Assembly: GCF_900774055.1 (NCBI RefSeq)
Contig: NZ_CAAGSW010000001.1
Span: 451,797-515,796, forward strand
From: Methanococcoides sp. AM1
Lineage (GTDB): Archaea; Halobacteriota; Methanosarcinia; Methanosarcinales; Methanosarcinaceae
Reading direction: 5' to 3'
DNA length: 64,000 nt
Shown: positions 21,497 to 32,733 of the stretch, in pieces
Layout of the letters: every line of letters begins with the position of its first letter
Position numbering within the stretch: the first letter of the stretch is position 1
Program-made: the position numbers and the translations under genes
Notes under the pieces: model-generated
Database searches by the model: none
What the model was told of the DNA's origin: nothing
The model's input: the letters and a program-made list of their open reading frames with translations, nothing else

Positions 21497-24400
21497 TCAT
21501 GTCACATTGATGTCCATTCCCTTTGCTTCAGCCTTGACATCCGGGTTGTAGTACGAGTAGGCACTGCTCTCCTGTACCATTGCCTTGACAGGGAACATGG
21601 CCCTCATCTGCAGTGAGAAGTTCATTTCCTCCCCGGCCATCATCTCATCGATATAGAGGACGACCTTGCGGCCTGCGATCTCATAGCGGGTGATGATGCC
21701 ATCGTCCTTGAGCGCCTCAAGGCTTGCAGGGACCGGCGTGAAACCTGTTGGTACTGCAATATCCACTATCATCATACCACTGGACTCGACAACTCCCCGG
21801 ATTCCCGGCATTCCGTTGTACTTCAGGCGCACATCGACGTTCACGATGTCATCCACAGCAACATCGGTGGAGTCGTATTCCACATCCAGCTCGATCTCCT
21901 CATGCTCGATGACTTCCGGAAGGATCACATTGAACTTTCTGACAAGCTGGTAGTTGAGCTCTCCACTTCCCTCGAGGGTCATGTTAACGCTTTCCACGCC
22001 CTCCGGAACCTCGATGATGTTGACTACATCGTAGTTCTCGGATGTGACCCTGATGCTCTTAAGTTCCTCACCATCTCCGCTAACGGTTATGGTAGCATCC
22101 ACGTCCCTTCCTGCAACTGCTGCAGCTGTCATCAGTGCCCTGAATGCCATGACGGTATCCTGGGTGCTTGAGAAACCTCCATTGGAATTACGCTGTGCTG
22201 CTATCCATTTGAGTGATGAGCTTGCTGCAGGGTCATTGACCTCTATCAGTGCAAGTGTTGCATAGGCTGTGGTCTCAACGTTCTTGCTTGAGACAGGATA
22301 GATTCCATAGCCTCCGTATTCGTAGGGTTCCGGAACCACGTCATCATAGCCCCAGTACATGCCATTCTCATCTTCCTTTGCCATTGCAAGCAGCTTGGCC
22401 CTTGCCTCGTCTGCCCTCTCGCTCTCAAGCTTTTCAAGAGCAAGCGTTCCAACTGCAAGGGTGTATGGGTCATCCTGAGCATCGAGATTATCCTCGAGAT
22501 ATGTGAGAGCACCGTTCATGACCTCGTCAGTGGCATACCCATACTCATCAAGTGCAAGAGTGATGTATGCCGTCAGAGCATAGGTTCCGCTGACACCGCC
22601 CATCATGTCCTGATGGATAACGAATCCCACGGACTCCCATGAACCGTCCGCCTTCTGGTGTGAGCCGATCCAGTCGGCTGCTTCCCTCAGGATGTTCTCG
22701 TCAATGGTTGTGATATCCCTGGCACCGCTGAACTGTGAAAGCACGAACGCTGTCAGCCAAAGGCTGCCTTCGGGATCGCTTTCACCGAATGCGGAGAAGG
22801 CACCGTCCGAATGCCTGAATGTCAGCTCCCTCTGGTAACCGGTGATTATGTAAGTCTGTGCCTTGGCCTCGATCTCCGGGTTCTGCTGGCCCGTGGCCTT
22901 CAGGTATCTCAGCACTTCCACATCGGTTGAGAACAGCATCATGTTCTGCTCGCCACATCCGTATGGCATGCCCAGAAGGTCATCGACACCGCTGATGGTC
23001 TGTGCCACAATGCTCGGCGTGAAACTAACCATCACCTTGCCGGAATCCGGCACAATATCCACAGGCAGCGTGGCATCAAGTTCAACGGAACCCTCCTTGA
23101 GAATGCCATTGTCCACGATCTCCCTGGTGACACCTTCTGCCTCAACGATAACCGTCTTGCGCACAGCATCAGCCTTCTCTGTGGTCTGTCCTGTCAGCTC
23201 GACCTCCTGGACACCCACTTCCGTAGGCCTGATGGTAAAGCTTGCATGGGTCACACTGTTGGCATCCACACTGACCTTTACGACATCCTCACCCACAAGG
23301 TCGAACCAGTCCGCACCGGAAAGAGTCAGCTGTACTTCCTGAGGTTTGTCAAGATAATTGAAGACCTGCACCTGTACAGGGAACTCTTCCCCGCGGATCA
23401 CAGCATAGGGAAGGTCAGGATCTATGAAGAAATCCTGGAATACTGTCAGGCCTGCTTCGGATATTCCAATACCTTCCGGACTGGAGGATACCGCATGCAA
23501 CCTCCAGGTGGTGATGGAATCCGGTGCGTTCAGGTCAAGGGATGCCAGTCCCTTATCATCCGTCATGATATCAGGCATCCATATCCATGTCTCAGGGAAG
23601 AACTGGCGTACCCTTTCAGGTTCTGCAAGTGTGGCACCAGCACCTGAATCAGTTGGCTCCATAGGGGCTGCCGCTGGAGCTTCCATCATAACTTCTTCTT
23701 CGACCATTTCCATGTCGTCCATTGCAAACATGCGATCGACAAAACCACCATCGGCAACTTCGGCCTGGCCTTTTGGAACATCAAGTCCACCGGATGCCAG
23801 TACTATCAGGCCCGCATCATCAATGACATCGCCTGCAGTCTCCTGATACCAGTAATAATTTGGATGAGCCTCTACCTGTGGCTCCATGAACCTGATCTCA
23901 AGCTCATCAAAGACCTGCTTCAGATTGAGCCTGCCCTCGCTCAGTGCATAGACCGATTCGTCAACTATGGAAAGGCCGATCATTGACTGAGTGCCTGCGT
24001 CCAGTTCCACTGAGACGTTATCTCCGGGAGCCACGGTTTCCTTATCAAATCCTGAGGATAGGTCCACCTGCGTACTGAACTTCACATCGAAAGGCAGGCT
24101 GTCAGCGGAGACCTCATTGTTCGGATTGATCATGTATGCGACCACCTTTGCAGTGGGGCTCATCTGAGGTGTGATCGGGATGCTGATCTGTGCTTCATCG
24201 CTGGTAGCAGAATATACGGTCCTGCCGTTTGCGAACACATCATAGAACACCGTTCCCTTGTTGGTGGAATATACCTTGAAGACGATGTTCTCTCCCACTT
24301 CGGGTGTGCCTTCGCTTACCTGGCTCAGATGCAGGAAACTTGCACTCGGAGAGTATACGGAATTCAGACGATCGGAAGCCTCAACACCTTCCGAGCTGGC

Positions 24401-25708
24401 AGAGATCTCCATCTCCCGGGCATCTTCAGGTACTTCAAGTGTGACAAGAGCAACACCGTTCTCAGTGCTGACGATCTGCTTCTGCTCGTCCCAGTCATAG
24501 TCGTCATCAAGGAAGCTCACAACAAGACTTACATCCTTCTCCAGTGGTTCCCCTCCCGGGTCCTTTGTGACTATAAGAACCTGAAGCGGCATTCCCGGCT
24601 TGATTGAATCAGACTCAGGTATCATCTGGAGAACAAGCTCGTTCTGCGCGATGGTAAGCAGTTCGGTTGTTTCCTCACTGTGCCCTCCGGTGTCAGTTAC
24701 GGTAACATTGAGCATGACACTGCCCTGTCCACCAGCACCAAAGGTACCTGCAACATACTCCGTGGGTGGAAGCTCGAACTCAACAAAACCTTCCTCAAGT
24801 GAGCCGCTAAAAGTTGCATATTCCTCCCAGACACCCACATATCTCATGGCCTTTATCTCAACGTCACCTTCAACATCCTTTCCGAAGAAATACTGTGCAG
24901 AGACCGTTCCTGTGATAGGATCATCCACAAGGAACCAGCTCTTCTCGGCGGAAGTTTCCAGATCGAACTTCGGAAGCACATATTTCTCCACCCTGATGTC
25001 AACCTCTGACATTGATGTGCCGGATGTTGCCTTTATCTTCCAGGTACCAAGGTTAAGCTCGGAGGCCAGCGGGAGATCAAAATATGCAACACCGTATTCA
25101 TTGGTGGTGAGATCATCCTTGAAAATCTTCACACCCTTGGCATCCGAGATTTCCACGGTGGTGTTCTGGACAACAGGCACAAGGTTGTTGTTCAGGGAAA
25201 GAAGACGCACATGGATGGTCTGCCCGGGCTTGTAGATCGGCTTATCTGTCTCTATGAAGATCGGGTTGTTCTGAACGACCTTTATGGTCGTTTCGAAGCC
25301 GGATTCAGCACCCACCGGAGTTGCAGTAAGTGTGTAACTGCCTTCCTCTACCTCCGGGACATCGAACTTAGCAACCGAATTACCGGAATCAGAAGTAGCA
25401 GCTTTTACCAGTGGAATTACCTCACCTGAAGCACTGGTAAGGGTGTATTCAAAACACCGGCTTACAGGAGCATCATCAAGGAAAGCCGACATGGTCACAG
25501 AACTTTCCCCTCCTGAGAAAAGTGCTTTTGGGACCAGTATCAGGAACTCATCCTCTGAGGAATAGGTACCTCCCTCCTCGCAGGATATGGCTTCGTTTGC
25601 AGGAGGATAATCCACATTCTCATCCTGGCCTATACAGCCTGCCATCACAATACATGACAGCAGGAACAATACGATGAACGACTTTTGCACAATTCCGATG
25701 GACCTCAT
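21497..25708 (-). CDS. Alpha-2-macroglobulin-family lipoprotein with intact thioester motif
   Basis: About 1403 residues. A lipoprotein signal (lipobox VMAGC) anchors it outside the membrane. Macroglobulin-like beta domains follow, including IFIETDKPIYKPGQTIHVR, the classic MG2 opening. A disordered, Met/Glu/Ala-rich segment (MVEEEVMMEAPAAAP) occupies the bait-region position. After FPETWIWMPD comes the thioester domain with PYGCGEQNM (Cys near 917), identical to the animal motif, then the alpha/alpha toroid and a C-terminal receptor-binding-like domain. Such proteins trap proteases covalently. No penicillin-binding protein gene is adjacent, unlike in bacteria. ATG at 25708 has GGGAG upstream and is preferred over the longer frame. 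Confidence 0.92.
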   Translation of the reverse strand: MRSIGIVQKSFIVLFLLSCIVMAGCIGQDENVDYPPANEAISCEEGGTYSSEDEFLILVPKALFSGGESSVTMSAFLDDAPVSRCFEYTLTSASGEVIPLVKAATSDSGNSVAKFDVPEVEEGSYTLTATPVGAESGFETTIKVVQNNPIFIETDKPIYKPGQTIHVRLLSLNNNLVPVVQNTTVEISDAKGVKIFKDDLTTNEYGVAYFDLPLASELNLGTWKIKATSGTSMSEVDIRVEKYVLPKFDLETSAEKSWFLVDDPITGTVSAQYFFGKDVEGDVEIKAMRYVGVWEEYATFSGSLEEGFVEFELPPTEYVAGTFGAGGQGSVMLNVTVTDTGGHSEETTELLTIAQNELVLQMIPESDSIKPGMPLQVLIVTKDPGGEPLEKDVSLVVSFLDDDYDWDEQKQIVSTENGVALVTLEVPEDAREMEISASSEGVEASDRLNSVYSPSASFLHLSQVSEGTPEVGENIVFKVYSTNKGTVFYDVFANGRTVYSATSDEAQISIPITPQMSPTAKVVAYMINPNNEVSADSLPFDVKFSTQVDLSSGFDKETVAPGDNVSVELDAGTQSMIGLSIVDESVYALSEGRLNLKQVFDELEIRFMEPQVEAHPNYYWYQETAGDVIDDAGLIVLASGGLDVPKGQAEVADGGFVDRMFAMDDMEMVEEEVMMEAPAAAPMEPTDSGAGATLAEPERVRQFFPETWIWMPDIMTDDKGLASLDLNAPDSITTWRLHAVSSSPEGIGISEAGLTVFQDFFIDPDLPYAVIRGEEFPVQVQVFNYLDKPQEVQLTLSGADWFDLVGEDVVKVSVDANSVTHASFTIRPTEVGVQEVELTGQTTEKADAVRKTVIVEAEGVTREIVDNGILKEGSVELDATLPVDIVPDSGKVMVSFTPSIVAQTISGVDDLLGMPYGCGEQNMMLFSTDVEVLRYLKATGQQNPEIEAKAQTYIITGYQRELTFRHSDGAFSAFGESDPEGSLWLTAFVLSQFSGARDITTIDENILREAADWIGSHQKADGSWESVGFVIHQDMMGGVSGTYALTAYITLALDEYGYATDEVMNGALTYLEDNLDAQDDPYTLAVGTLALEKLESERADEARAKLLAMAKEDENGMYWGYDDVVPEPYEYGGYGIYPVSSKNVETTAYATLALIEVNDPAASSSLKWIAAQRNSNGGFSSTQDTVMAFRALMTAAAVAGRDVDATITVSGDGEELKSIRVTSENYDVVNIIEVPEGVESVNMTLEGSGELNYQLVRKFNVILPEVIEHEEIELDVEYDSTDVAVDDIVNVDVRLKYNGMPGIRGVVESSGMMIVDIAVPTGFTPVPASLEALKDDGIITRYEIAGRKVVLYIDEMMAGEEMNFSLQMRAMFPVKAMVQESSAYSYYNPDVKAEAKGMDINVT

Positions 25709-25962: not shown

Positions 25963-26253
25963 TTAGAACGAATTTATGTTCCTTGTTCCATTGATAAGTT
26001 CATTTGCAGCACCGAACGCATTGCTTCCATAAACATTTGTTTCAAAGAACGAAATTACTTCAGTACCTGCTGCAATCAATAAGAAAGCAGAAACAAGCCC
26101 TACCAGTGATAATTGCAGTACATCATCGTTGTTAGTTTCACTACCATAGATTAAGCCAAGAAATGACAATATTGCTATCCATGGAGCTAAACCCACTGCT
26201 ATACATGCAATCATGTAAACTGCGTATAATCCTAATACGAAGATTACTACCAC
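25963..26253 (-). CDS. Small membrane protein, unknown, start uncertain
   Basis: 96 residues from the GTG at 26253, with three membrane helices (about 3-22, 26-40, 46-68) and a C-terminal soluble tail with N-x-T sequons (NGT). I do not recognise the family. The frame is open upstream to 26302, and a perfect ribosome binding site GGTGAT (26293-26298) sits well before the GTG. A non-standard start (ATT near 26287-26289), adding FDFNLFRNPLVVV, is therefore possible. It lies between the terminator of the 456-residue gene and the palindromic region. Confidence 0.55.
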   Translation of the reverse strand: MVVIFVLGLYAVYMIACIAVGLAPWIAILSFLGLIYGSETNNDDVLQLSLVGLVSAFLLIAAGTEVISFFETNVYGSNAFGAANELINGTRNINSF

Positions 26254-26324
26254 TACAAGAGGATTCCTAAAGAGGTTAAAATCAAAAATAAAATCACCTT
26301 CTTATGTTGATATCATACTATCAA

Positions 26325-26350
26325 AAGGATAGTGTAAATGAACTATCCTT
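26325..26350 (-). terminator. Terminator of the winged-helix/456-residue operon
   Basis: A perfect 9-base-pair inverted repeat (AAGGATAGT at 26325-26333, ACTATCCTT at 26342-26350) with an 8-base loop. It begins at the stop codon of the 456-residue gene and is followed on the minus strand by TTTTGATAG. Confidence 0.6.
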
Positions 26351-27719
26351 ATTCACATCCCCATGTGCCATAAAAGGACGGAGAAGAAAATGTTTTGATG
26401 TATTCTTTGCCTGGGTTTATCTCTCCCTTGCGTACATTTTCATTCCATTTGTCGGAGAGTTCGTTCATGGAAGCAATATTATAAGGTTTAGAGAACCGTG
26501 TACGATATGCTCTTGCCTTCGAAGGCTCAAGTTCTTCACTTGAAGCCGTGTTGCGAATACTAGCAAGTGCAGGTAATGATTGCTTATGGCTCTGCAATTT
26601 ATTTATTTCATTTGCATCCCATAGGCGCCTTGCATCAATATTTAAGGCTTTACCATGCATGACACGATTCTTTGAATTGCCACCGCCTCCGTTCTTGAAA
26701 ATGTCCCTTAACGCCAGATTTGGGGTATACGAAGCAAAGCTTGCCCCCATATCAAAAGCAGGCAATCCGATTAACCCGAACCGTGAAAGCCACAATGGTA
26801 AGTGTTCATCCTGAGCGACGTGGGACAGTTCCGTAATAAGTTTTGAGAGCGTAGCGACCTGAGCATCGTTCCCAGAAATCCTTTCGAGATCTCTTACAGA
26901 TAGATAGATCCCGTCAAACCAATTGTAGTCCATGGCCTCTTTGCTTAAAGATACAATCTTCTTCAACTCATCCGAAAAATCATTACGACCAATCATTGAA
27001 GTATTCAGATTGATAGTATAGAGGCAACCCGGAACAGTTTCTCCTTCATCCTCTCTGTCAGAAATAATAGAACCATACCCTAAGTTAACATTGTGGGAAA
27101 GGCCGATACTGGATGGATATTTCTTATTCATTACAGGTAATATTCCCGACAAAAATTTAGCTTTTGCTTGCAATGATAGGTCTATTGATGCATTAATCAA
27201 TAAGCGAAAAAGATGTTCACCCTCGCAATTATTTGCTAGATCTGTCCAAAATGAATATTTTTGATAGCTTCTCTCCACTGAATCTCCCAAATATGATGAC
27301 AATGCTACAGCTTTCTTGTGATCAAAACCAATATTGTCTTTTTGGAGTATCCATTCTATGCTTTCCTTGAACTTTTGAACACCTTCGTCAGCTGCTAACC
27401 ATGTTACCTCGCTTGGGAACGAGATTAATGTGGGGGAATTGTTCACAAGAGATACATATGATGTCTCATCGCGTCCACTATCCAGCTCTACTTTATTTGC
27501 TTTCGCAAGTAGCTGTTTAGTTCTATATCCATTCATCTCAAGTGGTTTCCCAGCAACCAAATCCTGGTTTTTCAGGATAATTTCGATATCTTCAGTTCCA
27601 GCAATATATGGTACAAGCCTGTTAAGAGATACTGGTTCTATGGAATTGTTTATATCAACCAGTTCTCCTAATTGGGCATCTCCAACGATCTTTTCAATAA
27701 TGGTCTCAGTCGTTCTCAT
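26349..27719 (-). CDS. Unrecognised 456-residue protein in an operon with a winged-helix gene
   Basis: A soluble protein of 456 residues; no signal peptide or membrane helix. I do not recognise it. The middle and C-terminal parts alternate short hydrophobic strands and helices. Near residue 270 is WFDGIYLSVRDLER, and near 310-335 is PLWLSRFGLIGLPAFDMGAS, the sort of late beta-strand pattern seen in TIM-barrel enzymes; this is only a suggestion. A basic low-complexity part with NGGGGNSKNRVMHGKAL follows. The start overlaps the stop of the upstream winged-helix gene by four bases, so the two act together. Codon usage looks more AT-rich than that of the neighbouring alpha-2-macroglobulin gene. 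Confidence 0.75.
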   Translation of the reverse strand: MRTTETIIEKIVGDAQLGELVDINNSIEPVSLNRLVPYIAGTEDIEIILKNQDLVAGKPLEMNGYRTKQLLAKANKVELDSGRDETSYVSLVNNSPTLISFPSEVTWLAADEGVQKFKESIEWILQKDNIGFDHKKAVALSSYLGDSVERSYQKYSFWTDLANNCEGEHLFRLLINASIDLSLQAKAKFLSGILPVMNKKYPSSIGLSHNVNLGYGSIISDREDEGETVPGCLYTINLNTSMIGRNDFSDELKKIVSLSKEAMDYNWFDGIYLSVRDLERISGNDAQVATLSKLITELSHVAQDEHLPLWLSRFGLIGLPAFDMGASFASYTPNLALRDIFKNGGGGNSKNRVMHGKALNIDARRLWDANEINKLQSHKQSLPALASIRNTASSEELEPSKARAYRTRFSKPYNIASMNELSDKWNENVRKGEINPGKEYIKTFSSPSFYGTWGCE

Positions 27720-28228
27720 GAAATATTCTCCGAAGCATAGTTGTCAAATTTGATGCTTAGTTCTTCTATAAATTCAATTAGTGAAGGGATATTTTCAAAA
27801 TCTATGAAAATACTACCTTCCACTTTTTCTCCTTCGAGGAGAGTAAATTTTCTTTCCTGTATTTGTAGGCGGGGTGCTCTTTTACCTTCATGGTAAGACA
27901 GTCGGAATATCTGATCTCCAAAGTCACGAGATTCTTGGAGATATTTGTGTATTAATTTCCCGTTGGGGTAATACAAAATACTCTTTGAACCTGGGATTTT
28001 CCTTTTGTAGATCTCTCTCCGAAAAGTAAGTTCTTCAAGCAAATCTCGAACTCTGTTTTCTGAAAGGTTCAGGAACTCTGCAATCGCTTGCACAGTAATC
28101 CCTTCCGGGTACTGCCTGACTATGTTCAATACCAATGAATGCCTGCCAGTGCCTTTTTCGACAGACCCCTCTGGACCTGAAGACCCAACAATATCACCCA
28201 TTGTTATTTCACTTAATCTAGTTACCAT
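27716..28228 (-). CDS. Winged-helix DNA-binding protein, probable autoregulator
   Basis: 170 residues. After a 25-residue leader, residues about 30-105 form a winged helix: HSLVLNIVRQYPEGITVQAIAEFLNLSENRVRDLLEEL (split here as helices 1-3), then a wing with REIYKRKIPGSKSILYYPNG. The C-terminal 65 residues form an unknown alpha/beta part. The start has GAGGG upstream. It is co-translated with the 456-residue gene (four-base overlap), and a palindrome between its TATA box and start suggests self-control. Confidence 0.78.
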   Translation of the reverse strand: MVTRLSEITMGDIVGSSGPEGSVEKGTGRHSLVLNIVRQYPEGITVQAIAEFLNLSENRVRDLLEELTFRREIYKRKIPGSKSILYYPNGKLIHKYLQESRDFGDQIFRLSYHEGKRAPRLQIQERKFTLLEGEKVEGSIFIDFENIPSLIEFIEELSIKFDNYASENIS

Positions 28229-32264: not shown

Positions 32265-32578
32265 TTGTCCATCTCCATGAAAGTTATCTAATTCAAACTA
32301 TATGTTAGAGATATGCAACATTAAACATTTATAATTAATGCTATTTTGTTTTTTAATAATGATATGAGAAAATGTAAAGAAGAAGCTGCAGAAGAAAACA
32401 TTCCTGCAAAATGAATCCCAATAATACCAAATGAAAAAGATAATGGAGAATATGCTTTACTTTGCTGGCAAGCCTTCCAATAAGAGGATAAAAGAACACA
32501 AAAATGACGGGATTTAATAAAAGTCCGCTTGAGCAACGCGAAGCGGACGCGGACTGCCGAGTCGCAATTCGGGTTTGA
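32265..32578. other. Intergenic stretch with a strong hairpin, no gene
   Basis: About 310 bases between the DUF2178-type gene and tRNA-Pro. The left part is AT-rich and should hold the promoter of the DUF2178-type gene. The right part holds the hairpin described next. The open frames seen here show no family pattern and are not reported as genes. Confidence 0.45.
32522..32554 (-). other. GC-rich hairpin downstream of tRNA-Pro
   Basis: GTCCGCTT (32523-32530) and AAGCGGAC (32541-32548) are perfect arms with a 10-base loop. An alternative pairing uses AGTCCGC (32522-32528) and GCGGACT (32548-32554). The two structures share the left arm and exclude each other. It lies 25 bases beyond the tRNA 3' end and may act in 3' processing or termination. 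Confidence 0.45.
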
Positions 32579-32653
32579 TGGGGCCGCTGAGATTTGAACT
32601 CAAGTCGCAAGACCCCCAGCCTTGCAGGATGGACCAGGCTACCCTACGGCCCC
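32579..32653 (-). tRNA. tRNA-Pro (GGG)
   Basis: Minus-strand cloverleaf of 75 bases: acceptor GGGGCCG/CGGCCCC, D-arm GGGTAGCCTGGTCCATCC, anticodon stem CAAGG/TCTTG around the loop CTGGGGG (anticodon GGG), and T-arm TTGAG-TTCAAAT-CTCAG. The discriminator is A (32579); CCA is not encoded. No intron. Confidence 0.95.
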
Positions 32654-32733
32654 ACGGGGTCGAACTATAATAAGACTTTTCAGTATATCATTCTTTCTGA
32701 AAAAAAGGTAAAAAAGGGTGTGAAAGTAAAGCT

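What the first reader, a model, noticed from the sequence alone, without database searches (positions are those of the whole stretch)
21497..25708. Archaeal alpha-2-macroglobulin-like lipoprotein with a perfect thioester motif
The thioester site PYGCGEQNM is identical to that of animal alpha-2-macroglobulin, and a flexible bait-like segment precedes the thioester half. In bacteria these genes pair with a penicillin-binding protein; archaea have no murein and none is present. A surface-anchored covalent protease trap, perhaps guarding the S-layer, would be an unusual archaeal defence.
Basis: partly seen in the sequence, partly recalled or inferred. Interest (0 to 1): 0.55.

Follow-up and report, generated by a model that had tools for sequence, protein, structure and literature searches.

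The report
Animal-type complement-like protein in archaea
A methane-making archaeon carries a cell-surface protein built like the animal immune proteins CD109 and alpha-2-macroglobulin, with the parts needed to be sprung by a protease and then bind it covalently, and its kin in many bacteria suggest that this immune machine may be older than animals.

Summary
In detail: window 21497-25708(-) encodes a 1403-aa lipobox-bearing alpha-macroglobulin with PYGCGEQNM and a disordered bait-like segment, in a Methanococcoides-type genome. It is not of the E. coli (PBP1c-linked) type: it has the animal domain set (MG2, MG3, MG4, bait domain, MG7, TED, receptor-binding domain) and none of E. coli's bMG domains; best PDB matches are A2M (1.8e-123), A2ML1 and CD109. 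(1) The acyl-imidazole His of C3, A2ML1 and CD109 is present (H1032; 79 of 81 family rows) where A2M has Asn, so hydroxyl-reactive chemistry is predicted. (2) The bait-release trigger described for A2ML1 (plug Arg730/Phe733/Pro734, channel Tyr214-Pro217, Asp758) is conserved. Relatives occur in Methanosarcinales, an altiarchaeon and five bacterial phyla. With an outgroup, AU tests reject rooting inside the three animal sequences used and reject archaea+animals, against a CD109-like origin in animals; sampling is thin. Archaeal macroglobulins as such were published in 2021 (PMC8416519). Most likely function: a membrane-tethered, single-use covalent trap for extracellular proteases. No activity, expression or target is shown; C3-like tagging is not excluded.

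The parts
21497..25708 (-). Whole gene: 1403-aa animal-type (CD109-like) thioester alpha-macroglobulin
   Evidence: 11 of 11 genomes of the genus, its own included, have one full-length match (two of them also have a weak 60-residue N-terminal match elsewhere)
25634..25708 (-). Signal peptide with lipobox; lipid-anchor Cys at residue 25
   Evidence: sequence. A lipobox-like motif in 38 of 46 archaeal rows, some of the others cut short. L017, L018, L020 and L022 have a hydrophobic N-terminus without the Cys
25271..25552 (-). MG1-like domain, residues about 53-146; C43 and C85 may form a disulfide (inferred)
   Evidence: beta strands in the model; Cys census
24989..25261 (-). MG2 domain, residues 150-240
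   Evidence: Pfam PF01835 1.3e-21
24971..24982 (-). Channel motif Y243-V-L-P246, counterpart of A2ML1 Tyr214-Pro217
   Evidence: Y 78, V 78, L 77 and P 78 of 78 rows with letters; mechanism from PMC9156758
24815..24985 (-). MG3 domain, residues 242-298
   Evidence: Pfam PF17791 9.3e-10
24392..24607 (-). MG4 domain, residues 368-439
   Evidence: Pfam PF17789 1e-08
23942..24322 (-). Bait-region domain of Pfam (MG5/MG6), residues 463-589
   Evidence: Pfam PF07703 7.3e-26
23630..23788 (-). Variable, disordered bait-like segment, residues 641-693, rich in Ala, Glu, Met, Gly and Asp with only one Lys and one Arg
   Evidence: lowest identity of 1295 windows; low pLDDT; composition
23594..23608 (-). 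Plug motif R701-Q-F-F704-P705, counterpart of A2ML1 Arg730-Pro734
   Evidence: R701, F704 and P705 in 81 of 81 rows
23321..23590 (-). A2M domain, residues 707-796, with D730 (counterpart of A2ML1 Asp758)
   Evidence: Pfam PF00207 4.9e-28; D730 in 80 of 81 rows
22130..23011 (-). Thioester domain (TED), residues 900-1193
   Evidence: Pfam PF07678 1.4e-79; matches C3d (1c3d) with rmsd 2.2 A over 275 residues, Z 33.3
22940..22966 (-). Thioester site PYGCGEQNM; C918 and Q921; C918 is the only Cys after residue 85
22613..22615 (-). H1032, predicted acyl-imidazole (hydroxyl-reactivity) histidine
   Evidence: aligns with His of C3, A2ML1 and CD109 and with Asn of A2M; H in 79 of 81 rows
21527..21787 (-). 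MG8 / receptor-binding-type domain, residues 1308-1394, with conserved aromatics Y1384, Y1386, Y1387 that may shield the thioester (inferred)
   Evidence: Pfam PF07677 6.4e-17; Tyr counts

Best explanation
The gene makes a membrane-tethered alpha-macroglobulin of the animal (CD109/A2ML1-like) design that works as a single-use covalent trap for extracellular proteases. The lipid anchor holds the N-terminus at the cell membrane (inferred from the lipobox). MG domains form a ring, and the stretch after the bait is threaded through a channel between MG2 and MG3 (inferred from conserved plug and channel residues). C918 and Q921 form an internal thioester kept dry under MG8 (inferred). A protease that cuts the exposed, acidic, Met/Ala/Pro-rich bait lets the plug retract, the TED swings out, and H1032 attacks the thioester to give an acyl-imidazole that acylates hydroxyl as well as amine groups on the protease, which ends up covalently held at the surface. 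Shown here: architecture, motif conservation, purifying selection, variable bait, one copy per genome in the genus, no conserved partner gene seen. Not shown: thioester formation, protease binding, expression, target.
For: Full animal domain order. Trigger residues described for A2ML1 (PMC9156758) kept: R701, F704 and P705 in 81 of 81, D730 in 80 of 81, Y243 and P246 in 78 of 78 rows with letters; in eight sequences of other macroglobulin types F704 is found in 0 and P705 in 2, though R701 in 6. H1032 in 79 of 81 rows; the equivalent A2ML1 His gives hydroxyl reactivity and aids protease capture in a monomeric inhibitor (PMC7864068, abstract and passages). Bait segment least conserved and disordered. 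Fold matches: native A2ML1 first (Z 41.5, 681 residues, rmsd 5.8 A), then C3, C5, TEP1 and A2M at Z about 40 and native CD109 at 35.4; CD109 is Foldseek's first match (1.7e-54). One full-length copy in 11 of 11 genomes of the genus, dN/dS 0.06-0.08.
Against: No activity, expression or target is known. Within the genus the bait is not under positive selection (dN/dS 0.03-0.10 where defined), so there is no sign of a fast arms race. The bait has only two basic residues, so trypsin-like proteases would have few sites. The His is equally what a complement-like tagger needs. The relative placing of the two model halves was not predicted, and pTM is only 0.45 and 0.66.
Confidence: 0.66

Rival explanations
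1. Complement-like tagger: once cleaved, the protein acylates glycans or proteins of a nearby cell or virus surface (or the cell's own S-layer glycoprotein) rather than the protease itself.
For: The catalytic His is that of C3 and C4B, where it allows bonding to surface glycans (PMC7864068); the TED matches C3d closely; archaeal surfaces are glycosylated (recalled).
Against: No anaphylatoxin or C345C domain in the Pfam table; no conserved partner gene in the flanks examined; membrane tethering limits reach (inference); A2ML1 shows that the same His serves protease capture.
Confidence: 0.2
2. Adhesion or envelope linkage: the thioester forms a covalent bond to a partner cell or to the cell's own envelope, as in streptococcal thioester adhesins, and the bait segment is only a linker.
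For: A streptococcal surface protein with an internal thioester that binds its host covalently is known (PMC4450167; search listing and start of abstract only).
Against: The bait plug and channel residues are conserved throughout the rows examined, which a plain linker would not need; the architecture is that of protease-triggered proteins.
Confidence: 0.07
3. Ordinary E. coli-type (type I) bacterial macroglobulin passed to a methanogen, as the 2021 paper suggests for Methanolobus.
For: PMC8416519 describes the Methanolobus psychrophilus protein as closely related to bacterial A2M homologues, citing the E. coli protein. Related bacterial sequences do exist.
Against: None of E. coli YfhM's bMG1, bMG2, bMG3, bMG5, bMG6 and bMG10 domains is found, while MG3, MG4 and A2M_recep, absent from YfhM's table, are. 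The archaeal protein finds A2M in the PDB at 1.8e-123; YfhM finds A2M at only 1.6e-06. YfhM has no His at the position. No pbpC nearby.
Confidence: 0.03
4. Recent transfer from an animal to archaea.
For: Strong similarity to animal proteins; transfer from animals is the published view for bacterial macroglobulins (passages of PMC9156758, and PMC13069473).
Against: Archaea plus the three vertebrate rows as one clade is rejected (AU p 1.6e-05) and a root inside the vertebrate rows is rejected (p 1.2e-04 and 2.0e-04) in a 24-row tree; unrooted, archaea and the Planctomycetota/Omnitrophota rows share a 100/100 branch apart from the vertebrates; mutS stands near the gene in 17 of 83 loci, all Methanosarcinaceae.
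Confidence: 0.04

Closest known systems
CD109 (animal GPI-anchored thioester protein)
   Same: Domain order, PYGCGEQNM, catalytic His, plug residues; best PDB sequence match of the TED (7e-53) and first Foldseek match of both model halves
   Different: Anchor is an N-terminal lipobox, not a C-terminal GPI tail: the chain ends 9 residues after the receptor-binding domain
A2ML1 (human monomeric protease inhibitor)
   Same: His for hydroxyl reactivity, plug residues; top structural match, Z 41.5 over 681 residues
   Different: A2ML1 is secreted, not anchored (recalled); no inhibition data for the archaeal protein
Vertebrate A2M
   Same: Thioester loop identical; best full-length PDB sequence match, 1.8e-123
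   Different: A2M has Asn where this has His; A2M is a tetramer (PMC12939704, start of abstract)
E. coli ECAM/YfhM (type I bacterial A2M)
   Same: Lipoprotein with CxEQ thioester, MG2, bait domain and TED
   Different: YfhM has six further bMG families, GCLEQ, no His and sits beside pbpC
Archaeal alpha-macroglobulin homologues of Makarova and co-workers 2021 (PMC8416519)
   Same: The paper reports a Methanolobus psychrophilus macroglobulin, probably of this group (not checked by accession)
   Different: The passages and the section read treat it as bacterial-type and do not mention the His, the bait trigger or an animal-type group; other archaeal types (GCPEQ, VEQ) are distinct
Insect TEP1 and complement C3
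   Same: Fold and thioester; His in C3
   Different: No anaphylatoxin or C345C domain of C3 in the Pfam table

Membership tests
Alpha-macroglobulin superfamily | MG domains, bait-region domain and TED in order | tested here: met
   seven Pfam families of this superfamily above cut-off
Alpha-macroglobulin superfamily | CxEQ thioester site | tested here: met
   GCGEQ at 917-921
Alpha-macroglobulin superfamily | Formed thioester that reacts after bait cleavage | not testable with these tools
   needs protein
Animal-type alpha-macroglobulin (CD109/A2M/C3 design) | MG3, MG4 and A2M_recep present, bMG domains absent | tested here: met
   compared with YfhM
Animal-type alpha-macroglobulin (CD109/A2M/C3 design) | Plug-in-channel residues of the bait trigger | tested here: met
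   residues present; that they are threaded in the native protein was not tested
CD109 | His at the acyl-imidazole position | tested here: met
CD109 | C-terminal GPI anchor | tested here: not met
   sequence ends at residue 1403, nine residues after the receptor-binding domain, without a hydrophobic tail; N-terminal lipobox instead. So not filed as CD109, only as CD109-like in design
Type I bacterial A2M (ECAM) | bMG1, bMG2, bMG3, bMG5, bMG6, bMG10 domains | tested here: not met
   none (E 0.01); all in YfhM
Type I bacterial A2M (ECAM) | Neighbouring pbpC | tested here: not met
   0 matches in ORFs around 83 loci; no transglycosylase in 30 relative genomes
Complement C3/C4/C5 | Anaphylatoxin and C345C domains | tested here: not met
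   neither in the Pfam table at E 0.01
Tetrameric A2M | Asn at the catalytic neighbour | tested here: not met
   His
Tetrameric A2M | Tetramer cage | not testable with these tools
   needs protein

The most novel reading that the evidence does not exclude
The CD109-like, protease-triggered, His-assisted thioester machine behind animal A2M, CD109 and complement did not arise in animals: it is a prokaryotic surface-defence protein, kept today in methanogenic and methanotrophic archaea and in deep bacterial phyla, and animals inherited or acquired it from that pool, perhaps from the Chloroflexota/Actinomycetota side.
Probability: 0.45. Interest if true: 0.85.

Novelty: new variant of a known kind. 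Interest (0 to 1): 0.6.

Why it matters
[quoted passage not shown] A CD109-like protein with the trigger residues and the catalytic His, in murein-free archaea and in five bacterial phyla (by record titles), makes the origin of complement-type immunity testable in prokaryotes. It also gives a system with cultured species (Methanococcoides, Methanolobus) for asking what archaea guard against outside the cell.

Tried and rejected
Operon partner: none seen. Across WIN, 80 loci and L152, L153 (83 in all, many on short contigs) the most shared neighbours are an ABC-transporter ATPase cluster (18 loci, four of them bacterial) and mutS (17 loci), i.e. conserved gene order of Methanosarcinaceae, not a dedicated partner. 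The three ORFs between the gene and the FMN reductase (25963-28228) fall in clusters found in no other locus, so they are not part of the system; none has a Pfam match above cut-off, and the two larger ones have no PADLOC match.

Catalogued defence system: 0 PADLOC families for the protein.

Fast-evolving bait as arms race: not supported within the genus, dN/dS of the bait 0.03-0.10, undefined against L033 because synonymous sites are saturated.

Direct measurement of the Cys-Gln distance: not possible, no coordinates are issued. The two model halves were folded apart, so threading of the bait was not modelled. E. coli-type structures are not among the 50 VIA rows shown; this is not evidence that the folds differ.

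Tree caveats. Vertebrates with Chloroflexota/Actinomycetota: 71 in the 75-row tree, 99/99 in the 24-row tree. Prokaryotes as one clade is not rejected (AU p 0.074), so animals may be sister to, not inside, the prokaryotic group. The root moves: archaea and Planctomycetota/Omnitrophota are one clade (98); archaea sit next to Chloroflexota/Actinomycetota plus vertebrates (91/95) with Planctomycetota outside. Archaea alone: 75, 95/89, 93/88. Planctomycetota+Omnitrophota+Hydrogenedentota is one group but not. Outgroup branches are very long (5+5), there are only three or four vertebrate rows and no invertebrate or algal rows, treekit warned of long branches meeting, and the tested groupings were chosen after earlier trees had been seen. 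Rows dropped before the 75-row tree: L053, L085, L087, L109 (cut or aberrant) and 19 near-duplicates. GCGEQNM was one of the two search patterns, so conservation of C918, E920 and Q921 in that set is partly by construction; H1032, R701, F704 and P705 are not in the patterns. Only the best 80 of 195 relatives were held. For the eight other-type sequences the alignment is remote, so single columns there are uncertain.

PbpC check has no positive control inside the set of ORFs searched.

Budd and co-workers 2004 (origin of the transfer-from-animals view) was not held; it is cited only as quoted in other papers. Searches for a prior report of this group; several lists were capped (for example 30 of 137, 8 of 176, 15 of 1,548, 6 of 4,931). 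Besides PMC8416519, passages of two listed papers mention macroglobulin-like proteins in archaea or deep bacteria: a sponge thaumarchaeon (PMC6697440) and Patescibacteria (PMC9793634); neither passage speaks of an animal-type group. bioRxiv and most subscription journals are not held.
Full report
What is there. The minus-strand ORF 21497-25708 is a 1403-residue protein. It starts with a signal sequence and lipobox (C25), then MG-type domains, a Pfam bait-region domain, a variable low-complexity stretch, an A2M/MG7 domain, a thioester domain and a receptor-binding-type MG8 domain; the seven Pfam families of the superfamily are all above cut-off. The thioester site is PYGCGEQNM. C918 is the only cysteine after residue 85.

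Who has it. All 11 genomes of the genus, its own included, have one full-length match; 28 of 60 genomes in that search, own included, match. A named-genome scan found 195 relatives, of which the best 80 were kept: 45 archaeal (Methanococcoides, Methanolobus, Methanomethylovorans, ANME-2, Methanoperedens, one altiarchaeon, others) and 35 bacterial (Planctomycetota, Omnitrophota, Hydrogenedentota, Chloroflexota, Actinomycetota, one unnamed bacterium). Most of the bacterial records are metagenome-assembled, but the set includes chromosome-length records (CP070678, 5.8 Mb; CP070819, 2.1 Mb), which speaks against contamination from animals. In the window's phylum the TED family matches 57 of 392 genomes, 53 above cut-off, but several of these are other types.

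Animal design, not E. coli design. A PDB sequence search ranks A2M (1.8e-123), A2ML1 and CD109 first. E. coli YfhM itself finds A2M at only 1.6e-06 and appears in the list for the archaeal C-terminal half at 1.3e-04. Pfam gives YfhM six bacteria-only bMG families and no MG3, MG4 or A2M_recep; the window protein, M. vulcani L040 and a Chloroflexota relative L092 show the reverse. A Sedimentisphaerales locus (L079) carries a YfhM-like gene close to one of this type, so the two can coexist. Bacterial macroglobulins are divided in the literature into type I (thioester, beside PBP1c in a number of bacteria) and type II (no thioester) (PMC5764988, passages); this group fits neither.

Chemistry. The residue that decides thioester chemistry in this superfamily is His in C3, C4B and A2ML1 and Asn in A2M; with His an acyl-imidazole intermediate forms and hydroxyls are attacked (PMC7864068, abstract and passages). 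The archaeal VIHQDMMGG aligns with C3 VIHQEMIGG, CD109 VIHSELQGG, A2ML1 LLHTAMKGG and A2M LLNNAIKGG. H1032 is kept in 79 of 81 rows; the other two are one truncated row (L087) and one aberrant row (L109). Of eight sequences of other types, none has His there: E. coli Tyr, five GCPEQ-type archaeal rows Asn or Asp, two VEQ-type archaeal rows Asp or a gap.

Trigger. In A2ML1 the stretch after the bait, Arg730-Pro734, plugs a channel lined by Tyr214-Pro217, and its retraction starts the conformational change, with Arg730 then held by Asp758 (PMC9156758, sections 8, 13 and 28 read in full). Counterparts here are R701-P705, Y243-P246 and D730. Counts over the 81 rows: R701 81, F704 81, P705 81, D730 80, and Y243 78, P246 78, L245 77 of 78 with letters. 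In the eight other-type sequences F is present in 0, P in 2 and R in 6. The same paper says key plug residues are kept even in placozoans; their presence in archaea and bacteria fits the same mechanism.

Bait. Residues 641-693 are the least conserved window of 1295 tested from residue 55 on, with 25% gaps and 20% identity, mostly predicted disordered. It is acidic and Met/Ala/Pro-rich with two basic residues, so metalloproteases, elastase- or subtilisin-like proteases are likelier activators than trypsin-like ones (inference). Within the genus it is not under positive selection.

Structure. The C-terminal half (residues 575-1403) was modelled from 43 sequences, pLDDT 76.2, pTM 0.66. Foldseek's best match is native CD109 at 1.7e-54. 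VIA-align puts A2ML1 first (Z 41.5, 681 residues, rmsd 5.8 A), followed by native C3, C5, TEP1 and native A2M at 40.0-40.2; native CD109 has 35.4 (677 residues). The N-terminal half (40-712), pLDDT 77.6, pTM 0.45, matches CD109 at 9.0e-34.

Evolution. In a 75-row tree the GCGEQNM group with the four vertebrate sequences is one side (95) against E. coli, GCPEQ and VEQ types; the Methanosarcinales-altiarchaeal rows (75) group with Planctomycetota, Omnitrophota and Hydrogenedentota (98). In a 41-row, unrooted tree with a site-mixture model archaea are one side of a branch (95/89), next to those bacteria (100/100). In a 24-row tree with a GCPEQ outgroup the vertebrates fall with Chloroflexota/Actinomycetota (99/99), and archaea lie next to that set (91/95). 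AU tests reject archaea+vertebrates (p 1.6e-05) and both rootings inside the vertebrates (1.2e-04, 2.0e-04); prokaryotes as one clade is not rejected (0.074). So the archaeal gene is not a recent animal gift, and the published view that the ancestral, CD109-like member originated in animals (PMC9156758) does not fit easily. Animal sampling is thin, outgroup branches are long and the root differs, so the direction is likely, not proven. Rows from two further archaeal families (f9, f10; L142-L144) fall among the Chloroflexota-type rows with weak support (65 and 51), a possible second acquisition.

Context. The gene stands near mutS (Pfam MutS domains I-V) in 17 of 83 loci, all Methanosarcinaceae, with no conserved partner seen, no pbpC seen and no murein transglycosylase in 30 relatives. 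Eight of 46 archaeal rows lack a recognisable lipobox, some because they are cut; four f2-family proteins have a hydrophobic N-terminus without Cys, so membrane attachment seems kept while its means changes.

Reading. A surface-tethered, single-use, covalent protease trap is the best-supported function (0.66), with complement-like tagging the main rival (0.2). What is known already: macroglobulins in archaea, including one from Methanolobus psychrophilus, called bacterial-type (PMC8416519, section 14 read in full); macroglobulin-like proteins noted in a sponge thaumarchaeon and in Patescibacteria (passages). What is added: the animal-type group, its His chemistry, its bait trigger and the tree tests.

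Noticed in passing
L145, L146, L147, L149, L151: A second archaeal macroglobulin-like type with GCPEQ(T/V)MSPA in open frames of 1700-1990 aa, Asn or Asp at the catalytic position; L145 has a Pfam cohesin match and no MG2 or A2M_BRD hit at E 0.001.
   Followed up: partly
L073, L075, L079 (C-terminal ends): Planctomycetota members end in about 50 extra residues with acidic repeats that look like a dockerin (recalled resemblance; no Pfam hit for L075).
   Followed up: partly
L079: A Sedimentisphaerales locus holds a YfhM-like frame (25% identity over 1295 columns) upstream of the CD109-like gene.
   Followed up: no
window 25963-28228: Three ORFs (96, 456, 170 aa) upstream of the gene fall in clusters found in no other locus examined, M. 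vulcani included; looks like a recent insertion.
   Followed up: partly
L142, L143, L144: Two other archaeal families (f9, f10) carry GCGEQNM/His members that fall among the Chloroflexota-type rows rather than with Methanosarcinales, weakly supported.
   Followed up: partly
L065, L067: Two Methanolobus loci have the gene in a shortened or split frame (1077 aa; 1096+329 aa), possibly pseudogenes or sequencing errors.
   Followed up: no
window 32353-32654: tRNA-Pro(ggg) at 32577-32654 on the minus strand overlaps an 85-aa ORF at 32353-32610 that is probably spurious.
   Followed up: no
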